Assembly (NCBI GenBank): GCA_000991645.1
Contig: LBRX01000002.1
Span: 1-44,311, forward strand
DNA: 44,311 nt
Direction of reading: 5' to 3'
Source of the DNA: Candidatus Moranbacteria bacterium GW2011_GWE2_36_40
GTDB lineage: Bacteria > Patescibacteriota > Minisyncoccia > Moranbacterales > GWC2-37-73
Part shown: positions 17,275-18,882 of the stretch, piece after piece
Layout of the letters: each line of letters starts with the position of its first letter
Numbering within the stretch: the first letter of the stretch is position 1
Program-made: the position numbers and the translations under genes
Notes under the pieces: generated by a model
What the model was told of the DNA's origin: nothing
Database searches by the model: none
The model's input: the letters and a program-made list of their open reading frames with translations, nothing else

Positions 17275-17763
17275 TTAGAAGGGTACGTCTTCAATTCTAA
17301 CTTCATCAGTTTCTTCATCAAGATTGATGGTTGGAATTTCTTCTGCTATCGGTGCTTGTTGTTGAGAAGCTGGACGAGATGCTGCAGCGGCTGCACCCAT
17401 CGTTGCTGGAGCTGGTCTTGGTCCGGATGAACCTTGCGCACGCTGTCCCATCTGCATGTTTTCAGCAATTATTTCTGTTGTTTTCCTTTCGACTCCGTCT
17501 TTGCCGGTAAAGGAATTTGTTTCGAGTCTTCCTTCGAAATATGCTTCTTGTCCTTTGGTTAGATATTGTCCAGCAATTTCAGCTAAACGTCCCCAAATTA
17601 CAATGTTGTGAAATTCCGTTTTCTCTTGTTTTTGTCCAGCTTTATCATTCCAAGTTCGGTTTGTTGCGATTCCAACTCTAGTCACTGTTTGGCCAGAAGG
17701 AGTGGTGCGCAATTCAGGGTCTCTAGTTAAACGTCCGATGAGTTGAACTTTGTTTAAATTCAT
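17275..17763 (-). CDS. ssb: Single-stranded DNA-binding protein
   Basis: MNLNKVQLIGRLTRDPELRTTPSGQTVTRVGIATNRTW…; acidic tail ending DVPF. Confidence 0.96.
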   Translation of the reverse strand: MNLNKVQLIGRLTRDPELRTTPSGQTVTRVGIATNRTWNDKAGQKQEKTEFHNIVIWGRLAEIAGQYLTKGQEAYFEGRLETNSFTGKDGVERKTTEIIAENMQMGQRAQGSSGPRPAPATMGAAAAASRPASQQQAPIAEEIPTINLDEETDEVRIEDVPF

Positions 17764-17868: not shown

Positions 17869-18426
17869 TTAAATATTGAGTAGCTCATCCAATTGCTTGT
17901 CGATGTTTTTTGATTCTTCTTTTGGAGTTTCAATTTTTTTTGCTGGAGCAGCAGTTGGGGTTGTTTGACGTTGAACAGGTCGTTGTGCTGGACGATAATT
18001 GTTGTCGCGTCGATCATTGTTTCTTGTTTGTGGTCTTTGTGCTCCTTGTGGTTTTTGCGAATTCATTTCTTGTGCTTTGCGACGATCTTTAGCACCGAGA
18101 TCTGGCAAATCTTTTGTTTTTACTATTATGAATCGCAAAACATCATTATTAAGATTCATCTTGTTTGTGATGGCGCTGATTCCAAATTCTTTTTCTCCAT
18201 TTGCTTCATCTGCCCAAAAGTCATTTTCGGGAAGTTCGAAACGTCTGGTAATATAGATCCCTTTGTTTTGGTGCTTGATTTCATAAGCGAGTTTTCTTTT
18301 TTCGCTTAATTCTTCTCCAACCATTGTGGCATTTTCCAATGCCAAGATTGCATTAACTCCTTCTTTGATTGCGGGCAGGTTTGCTTCTTGGCGTTCGCCA
18401 ACAAGGTAAAACAGTTCGTATTGCAT
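17869..18426 (-). CDS. rpsF: 30S ribosomal protein bS6 with long low-complexity C-terminal extension
   Basis: MQYELFYLVGERQEANLPAIKEGVNAIL…KRKLAYEIKHQNKGIYITRRFELP…NNDVLRFIIVK; tail rich in Q/R/P/N. Confidence 0.9.
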   Translation of the reverse strand: MQYELFYLVGERQEANLPAIKEGVNAILALENATMVGEELSEKRKLAYEIKHQNKGIYITRRFELPENDFWADEANGEKEFGISAITNKMNLNNDVLRFIIVKTKDLPDLGAKDRRKAQEMNSQKPQGAQRPQTRNNDRRDNNYRPAQRPVQRQTTPTAAPAKKIETPKEESKNIDKQLDELLNI

Positions 18427-18479
18427 ACGCGTTTTGTTTAATTAATTATAATTGATCAATAAAATTGTGAAAACTTTTT

Positions 18480-18604
18480 ATTGAAATAATTTTGAATTTC
18501 TAATTTTGAATTTCGAATCAAACTTGAATGATAGAATGTTTAAAACATTAAATCATTAAAAATTAAAAATTGATTCGAAATTCGAGTTTCAAAATTCAAA
18601 ATTT
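18480..18604. repeat. AT-rich inverted repeat (AATTTTGAATTTCGAATCAA…TTGATTCGAAATTC…AATTCAAAATTT)
   Basis: Self-complementary arms; related AAAATTGAAAATT blocks at 19000-19130 and 44025-44160. Confidence 0.6.
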
Positions 18605-18608
18605 CTAC

Positions 18609-18710
18609 AAAAAAATTCCACCAAACAAGAAAATCCTTGCTTTTAGTGGAGCATTCCAACCTATCCGTTTTTGGCTCAACGGCGGGCTAGATTCGGACTT
18701 TCTTAGTTGT
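18609..18710 (-). ncRNA. Candidate ~100-nt structured small RNA
   Basis: Minus-strand promoter TTGCCA-16-TATAAT at 18744-18717, hairpin CCGTT/AACGG, 3' hairpin TCCACTAAA…TTTGGTGGA followed by a T7 run; no plausible CDS. Confidence 0.5.
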
Positions 18711-18716
18711 GAATAA

Positions 18717-18744
18717 ATTATAGCAGGTTTTGGGGATTTGGCAA
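18717..18744 (-). promoter_or_regulatory. Promoter for the candidate sRNA (TTGCCA-16-TATAAT)
   Basis: Boxes read on the minus strand. Confidence 0.55.
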
Positions 18745-18828: not shown

Positions 18829-18882
18829 CTAAGCTCCTTTGTCGACCATCGGATCTCTGTGTCTGCAACCTTTCTCTTTCAT
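18829..18882 (-). CDS. 17-aa ORF (MKEKGCRHRDPMVDKGA) with strong SD
   Basis: Minus strand AAAGGAGG 8 nt upstream of ATG; promoter TTGACA-18-TAATAT at 18953-18924. Confidence 0.4.
   Translation of the reverse strand: MKEKGCRHRDPMVDKGA

What the first reader, a model, noticed from the sequence alone, without database searches (positions are those of the whole stretch)
18609..18744. Candidate standalone ~100-nt sRNA upstream of rpsF-ssb-rpsR-efp
On the minus strand, TTGCCA-16-TATAAT is followed by AACTAAGAAAGTCCGAATCTAGCCCGCCGTTGAGCCAAAAACGGATAGGTTGGAATGCTCCACTAAAAGCAAGGATTTTCTTGTTTGGTGGAATTTTTTT. It has a small CCGTT/AACGG hairpin, a long terminator hairpin and a U-tract. I could not match it to tRNA, SRP, RNase P, tmRNA or 6S motifs by eye.
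Basis: partly seen in the sequence, partly recalled or inferred. Interest (0 to 1): 0.7.

Follow-up and report, generated by a model that had tools for sequence, protein, structure and literature searches.

The report
Terminator-switch leader of rpsF operon
The 'small RNA' is really the first 100 nucleotides of the messenger RNA for ribosomal protein S6: a folded switch, kept by nearly a whole order of tiny bacteria, that most likely lets excess S6:S18 protein stop transcription of its own genes.

Summary
The sequence features are real: promoter, about 100-nt structured RNA, terminator hairpin and U-tract (18744-18609, minus strand). The 'standalone sRNA' reading is not supported. The element lies directly upstream of rpsF in nearly every genome of the same order (108 of 123 rpsF upstreams by a structure-only search); outside that order I did not find it. 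It folds into a two-part hairpin (P1/P2, internal loop YCG/ANnA) with very strong covariation. It also has two mutually exclusive pairings that covary: the transcript's 5' end pairs with the terminator's 3' arm (antiterminator, default fold), or the terminator forms. No Rfam family matches. In 37 of 102 leaders the U-tract ends within 45 nt of the rpsF start, so the RNA is in cis. The 5' strand carries AAAGNCC, which resembles the conserved AGNCC element of the known S6:S18 leader, but placed at the other end of the structure. Best explanation: a ribosomal-protein leader in which S6:S18 binding holds the 5' strand and lets the terminator form. Leader, switch and conservation are shown computationally; ligand and direction of control are inferred. 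New variant of a known kind.

The parts
18717..18744 (-). sigma-70-type promoter: -35 TTGCCA 18744-18739, -10 TATAAT 18722-18717
   Evidence: across the order a TAnnnT -10 lies 4-8 nt upstream of the conserved box in 98/104 leaders (14/104 in shuffles) and 96 of those 98 have a TTG -35
18609..18710 (-). leader RNA, about 102 nt, predicted +1 at about 18710 (ACAAC...)
   Evidence: CM R1 matches 18611-18710
18695..18710 (-). 5' strand ACAACUAAGAAAGUCC: antiterminator 5' half; AAAGUCC (18701-18695) is the conserved box AAAGNCC
   Evidence: AAAGNCC found in 99/108 leaders located without using it
18685..18691 (-). P1 5' strand UCUAGCC
   Evidence: pairs with 18661-18655; all 7 pairs show two-sided changes over 79 leaders
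18683..18684 (-). internal loop 5' side CG (with the preceding Y: YCG triplet)
   Evidence: present in nearly every leader of the order
18665..18682 (-). P2 hairpin CCGUU...AACGG
   Evidence: all 5 pairs with two-sided changes; loop tolerates large inserts
18662..18664 (-). internal loop 3' side AUA (A-N(1,2)-A in relatives)
18655..18661 (-). P1 3' strand GGUUGGA
18617..18650 (-). intrinsic terminator hairpin UCCACUAAAAGCAAG-GAUUUU-CUUGUUUGGUGGA
   Evidence: hairpin plus T-run found in 102/106 parsed leaders
18627..18636 (-). antiterminator 3' half GGAUUUUCUU, pairs with AAGAAAGUCC 18704-18695; overlaps the terminator's 3' arm
   Evidence: cognate duplex -12.7 against -10.3 kcal/mol non-cognate, 0/2000 permutations; overlaps terminator 3' arm in 95% of leaders
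18609..18615 (-). U-tract
17869..18426 (-). rpsF (ribosomal protein S6)
   Evidence: PF01250, E 1.7e-12
17275..17763 (-). ssb
   Evidence: PF00436
16972..17178 (-). rpsR (ribosomal protein S18)
   Evidence: PF01084
16339..16935 (-). efp (elongation factor P)
   Evidence: PF09285, PF08207, PF01132

Best explanation
A cis-acting ribosomal-protein leader of the rpsF-ssb-rpsR-efp operon that works by transcription attenuation. Transcription starts at about 18710. P1/P2 folds first. The 5' strand (AAGAAAGUCC) then pairs with GGAUUUUCUU as it emerges, forming an antiterminator before the terminator's 3' arm is complete, so the default is read-through. When S6:S18 exceeds its rRNA sites, the dimer most likely binds the AAAGNCC strand together with the adjacent P1/P2 hairpin. 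This holds the strand back from antiterminator pairing, the terminator forms, and transcription stops after about 100 nt. Shown by computation: leader position, covarying P1/P2, covarying and mutually exclusive antiterminator and terminator, promoter position. Inferred: transcription itself, S6:S18 as ligand (about 0.75), repression by favouring the terminator (about 0.7), AAAGNCC as the contact (about 0.6).
For: Directly upstream of rpsF in every family homolog and across the order. Structure-only search finds the P1/P2 core in 108/123 rpsF upstreams against 15% of shuffles. 79 leaders: 92.4% of pair cells standard (shuffled 72.8), 20/23 pairs with two-sided changes, slid controls collapse. 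P1 located by sequence anchors only: 6.3/7 cognate pairs against 4.3 between families, 0/2000 permutations. Antiterminator duplex -12.7 cognate, -10.3 non-cognate, -5.7 kcal/mol shuffled, 0/2000, with compensatory sets such as CAAGAGAG/CUCUCUUG and CAAAAGAG/CUCUUUUG. Window energies: antiterminator fold -30.5, terminator fold -28.1; the antiterminator appears at nt 82 of the growing chain. U-tract to start codon <= 45 nt in 37/102. In 16 named rpsF leaders from other lineages the CC just 5' of the helix strand is present in all and AGNCC in 10; mutating two highly conserved cytosines of the E. coli leader to adenines abolishes S6:S18 control (PMC4647458). AAAGNCC persists where its AAA no longer pairs (G799, G067, G080), and N varies while AAAG and CC do not.
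Against: No transcript or binding data. AGNCC is short, and in the canonical leader it lies 3' of the hairpin, not 5'. That the mutated cytosines of the E. coli paper are the CC of this element is my reading of the sequences (the figure is not held). The Rfam S6:S18 model (RF02893) does not match, though it also misses Bacillus and most other controls. The energies of the two folds differ by only 2.4 kcal/mol, so the default state is not certain. A promoter-like TTTTCA-17-TATAAT lies at 18473-18445, between terminator and rpsF in this window.
Confidence: 0.75

Rival explanations
1. Same attenuator architecture, but the ligand is something else: SSB or EF-P from the same operon, S18 alone, or a small molecule.
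For: The operon encodes ssb and efp as well. The P1/P2 internal loop (YCG / A-N(1,2)-A) looks like a binding site in its own right, and the strand order does not copy the canonical S6:S18 leader.
Against: First gene is rpsF with rpsR in the operon, and the studied rpsF leaders respond to S6:S18 (PMC4647458, PMC10931766). The AGNCC element is shared with them.
Confidence: 0.17
2. Attenuator with the opposite logic or none: the ligand stabilises the antiterminator, or the leader is a constitutive partial terminator without a ligand.
For: The two folds are close in energy. Ligand and direction cannot be read from sequence.
Against: Known r-protein leaders repress (PMC7247131). Conservation of AAAGNCC and YCG beyond pairing needs argues for a ligand.
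Confidence: 0.15
3. Standalone trans-acting sRNA that happens to lie upstream of rpsF; rpsF has its own promoter.
For: Own promoter and terminator; a promoter-like site at 18473-18445 in this window.
Against: Linked to rpsF in nearly the whole order; 26 leaders end within 30 nt of the start codon; promoter-like sites in longer gaps 8/59 against 15/59 in shuffles; the conserved antiterminator has no role in a plain sRNA.
Confidence: 0.04
4. Short protein-coding sequence (87-codon ORF 18868-18605).
For: An open frame exists.
Against: TTG start; relatives vary by indels not in multiples of three, and the P2 loop carries inserts of any length; the changes are base-pair compensations.
Confidence: 0.01

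Closest known systems
Widespread S6:S18 leader (Matelska 2013; Fu 2014; Rfam RF02893 RpsF_leader for the gammaproteobacterial form)
   Same: In front of rpsF; hairpin plus stem; A-G-N-CC element a few nt 5' of a helix strand; presumed S6:S18 ligand.
   Different: Canonical: CC is on the 3' side, H1 contains the Shine-Dalgarno sequence, translation is repressed in E. coli. Here: AAAGNCC is at the very 5' end, the SD is not involved, the output is an intrinsic terminator with a covarying antiterminator, and there is an extra YCG/ANnA internal loop.
Chlorobi S6:S18 leader (PMC7247131)
   Same: A lineage-specific r-leader in front of rpsF with no match to the widespread motif.
   Different: Restricted to Chlorobi; described there as not resembling rRNA. 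Not compared here by model beyond the general Rfam scan.
B. subtilis L10(L12)4 leader (rplJL attenuator; PMC4538822)
   Same: Works alike: r-protein binding to a leader controls transcription attenuation.
   Different: Different genes, ligand and RNA; no sequence relation tested.

Membership tests
Transcription attenuator / r-protein leader (class of mechanism) | Promoter-proximal structured RNA directly upstream of an r-protein operon, conserved with it | tested here: met
Transcription attenuator / r-protein leader (class of mechanism) | Mutually exclusive antiterminator and intrinsic terminator, both conserved | tested here: met
Transcription attenuator / r-protein leader (class of mechanism) | Regulated termination in response to a ligand | not testable with these tools
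   needs in vitro transcription or RNA-seq
Rfam RF02893 RpsF_leader | Score above the family's gathering threshold (37 bits) | tested here: not met
   0/20 relatives. The model also finds only E. coli among 14 controls
Widespread S6:S18 leader motif | Conserved CC (A-G-N-CC) next to a helix, bound by S18 | tested here: inconclusive
   AAAGNCC in 99/108 leaders and canonical AGNCC in 10/16, CC in 16/16, but position and strand order differ
Widespread S6:S18 leader motif | H1 stem sequestering the SD with the CC bulge on its 3' side | tested here: not met
   leader ends in a terminator 6-269 nt before the start codon; no SD in P1
Widespread S6:S18 leader motif | Binding of S6:S18 | not testable with these tools
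   needs EMSA or filter binding
Standalone sRNA | Own transcription unit independent of the downstream gene | tested here: not met
   cis linkage in the whole order

The most novel reading that the evidence does not exclude
The leader is a circularly permuted S6:S18 site in which the protein's recognition strand (AAAGNCC) is itself the antiterminator strand, so protein binding and antitermination compete for the same seven nucleotides.
Probability: 0.4. Interest if true: 0.7.

Novelty: new variant of a known kind. Interest (0 to 1): 0.55.

Why it matters
Gene regulation in these roughly 1-Mb, apparently uncultured genomes is almost unknown. A switch kept in front of one operon across an order of at least 11 families is a directly testable case of ribosomal-protein autocontrol by transcription termination. 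It would extend S6:S18 control, shown as translational in E. coli, to attenuation, as Babina et al. (PMC4647458) expected could happen. It would also add another RNA solution for the same ligand, useful for studying how RNA-protein recognition is reinvented.

Tried and rejected
Rfam at gathering and at E <= 10: no meaningful hit. RNase P-like 5' string (AGAAAGUCCG) considered from memory; not matched by Rfam and rejected by context. RF02893 over relatives: none. 16S of the own genome: no SSU match in the assembly, so a direct comparison with its own S6:S18 rRNA site was not possible. A logo made with a regex that itself required AAAGNCC and YCGY is circular and is not used as evidence; one search replaces it. 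The original papers of Matelska and Fu are not held, so the canonical motif was rebuilt from 16 rpsF loci. Marginal CM hits in other families of the class (for example G272, G256, G262) are short partial matches and look like chance; 26 rpsF upstreams from other orders had no box plus core.

Full report
Observation. The promoter, the RNA and the terminator are in the sequence as described. The RNA folds better than shuffles (z = -3.0) and matches no Rfam family.

Context. Downstream on the same strand are rpsF, ssb, rpsR and efp; uvrB is divergent. A DNA search in relatives found strong homologs in all five other genomes of the genus searched and in most of the family. Every one of them that was read lies upstream of rpsF. 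I then located rpsF in the whole order (126 of 132 genomes) and read the upstream DNA of essentially all of them. Nearly all carry the same layout: promoter, ACAAYUNAGAAAGUCC, P1, YCG, P2, A-N(1,2)-A, P1', terminator whose top contains GGACUUUCUU or a variant, U-tract, rpsF. Family f9 is the most divergent and the weakest case. rpsF upstreams from other orders of the class do not have it (0 of 26), and a covariance model finds nothing convincing elsewhere in the phylum (that model was built from one family and may miss distant forms).

Structure. In 13 family sequences P1 pairs in 98.9% of cells with 5 of 7 pairs changed on both sides, and P2 in 96.9% with 3 of 5. In 79 sequences of the order 20 of 23 pairs have two-sided changes, 92.4% of cells pair against 72.8% in shuffles, and sliding the partners by one column drops pairing to 51-65%. 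That alignment was fitted to the structure, so I also located P1 by sequence anchors only: 6.3 of 7 pairs with the cognate partner, 4.3 with partners from other families, 0 of 2000 permutations as good. A search by structure alone, without the 5' box, found the core in 108 of 123 upstreams (15% of shuffles), and AAAGNCC then appeared in the 28 nt before P1 in 99 of the 108.

Switch. The terminator hairpin with a T-run was found in 102 of 106 parsed leaders. The 5' strand pairs with the terminator's 3' part at -12.7 kcal/mol on average in cognate pairs, -10.3 with partners from other families and -5.7 with shuffled partners, 0 of 2000 permutations as good, and the pairing covers part of the terminator's 3' arm in 95% of leaders. 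Some clades changed both strands together (CAAGAGAG/CUCUCUUG, CAAAAGAG/CUCUUUUG). In the window leader the antiterminator fold is at -30.5 and the terminator fold at -28.1 kcal/mol. In a growing-chain calculation the antiterminator forms at nt 82, before the terminator's 3' arm is out. So read-through is the likely default and something must favour the terminator.

Leader, not sRNA. A -10 box lies 4-8 nt before ACAA in 98 of 104 leaders, with a -35 in 96 of those, so the box is at the transcript's 5' end. The U-tract ends 45 nt or less before the start codon in 37 of 102 leaders (cases at or below 35 nt come from eight families), and longer gaps have no excess of promoter-like sites.

Ligand. 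E. coli and B. subtilis rpsF leaders bind S6:S18, and in E. coli the dimer represses translation; changing two conserved cytosines abolishes control (PMC4647458; review PMC10931766). From 16 named rpsF loci of other lineages I rebuilt the conserved element as A-G-N-CC-R two to four nt before the SD-containing helix strand: CC in 16 of 16, AGNCC in 10 of 16. The order's leaders have AAAG-N-CC zero to six nt before P1, with the same variable N (U 85, C 11, A 2, G 1). AAAGNCC is kept even where its AAA is no longer part of the antiterminator pairing. This suggests a second constraint, most simply protein binding. The element is at the opposite end of the structure from the canonical one, so I do not file the leader as a member of that family; I say that it probably answers to the same protein. 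The YCG/ANnA internal loop is an alternative or additional contact.

Mechanism committed to: default antitermination; excess S6:S18 takes the AAAGNCC strand and P1/P2; the terminator forms; the operon is off. Confidence 0.75 in the statement as a whole, above 0.9 that this is a cis-acting rpsF attenuator.

Limits. No transcripts, no binding data, no organism names (the named-genome search did not complete). The small genomes of the whole phylum suggest Patescibacteria (CPR); this is inference. The paper library found no report of such a leader in these bacteria, but the library holds open-licence papers only.

Noticed in passing
window 18953-18750 (-): Upstream of the leader: TTGACA-16-GATAAT, strong SD, a 17-codon ORF (MKEKGCRHRDPMVDKGA, ATG at 18882) and an 11-bp hairpin at 18777-18750. 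Found in no other fetched genome; could be a tiny gene or leader peptide, or chance.
   Followed up: partly
window 18476-18615: A+T-rich imperfect inverted repeats (54-nt arms, 78% complementary) fill the gap between the terminator and rpsF; gap length varies from 6 to 269 nt in relatives.
   Followed up: partly
L083, L085, L098, L059 (upstream of rpsF); L015:1545-1690: The P2 loop carries large inserts, in one family repeated CTTGTCACGCCGTAGC...GGCGGACC units that look like mobile intergenic repeats, without breaking P1 or the switch.
   Followed up: no
L147 and L155, within about 150 nt before rpsF: In other orders of the class rpsF has a different leader: a long hairpin GCCCAGUAAUACAAC...GUUGAUAUACUGGGUAUG whose 3' arm runs up to the start codon, suggesting translational control.
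   Followed up: no
L021, L177-L184, L188 (rpsF leaders of named species): Rfam RF02893 RpsF_leader finds only E. coli among 14 control genomes and misses Bacillus, Paenibacillus, Priestia and Halomonas rpsF leaders, so a missing Rfam hit says little about S6:S18 leaders.
   Followed up: yes
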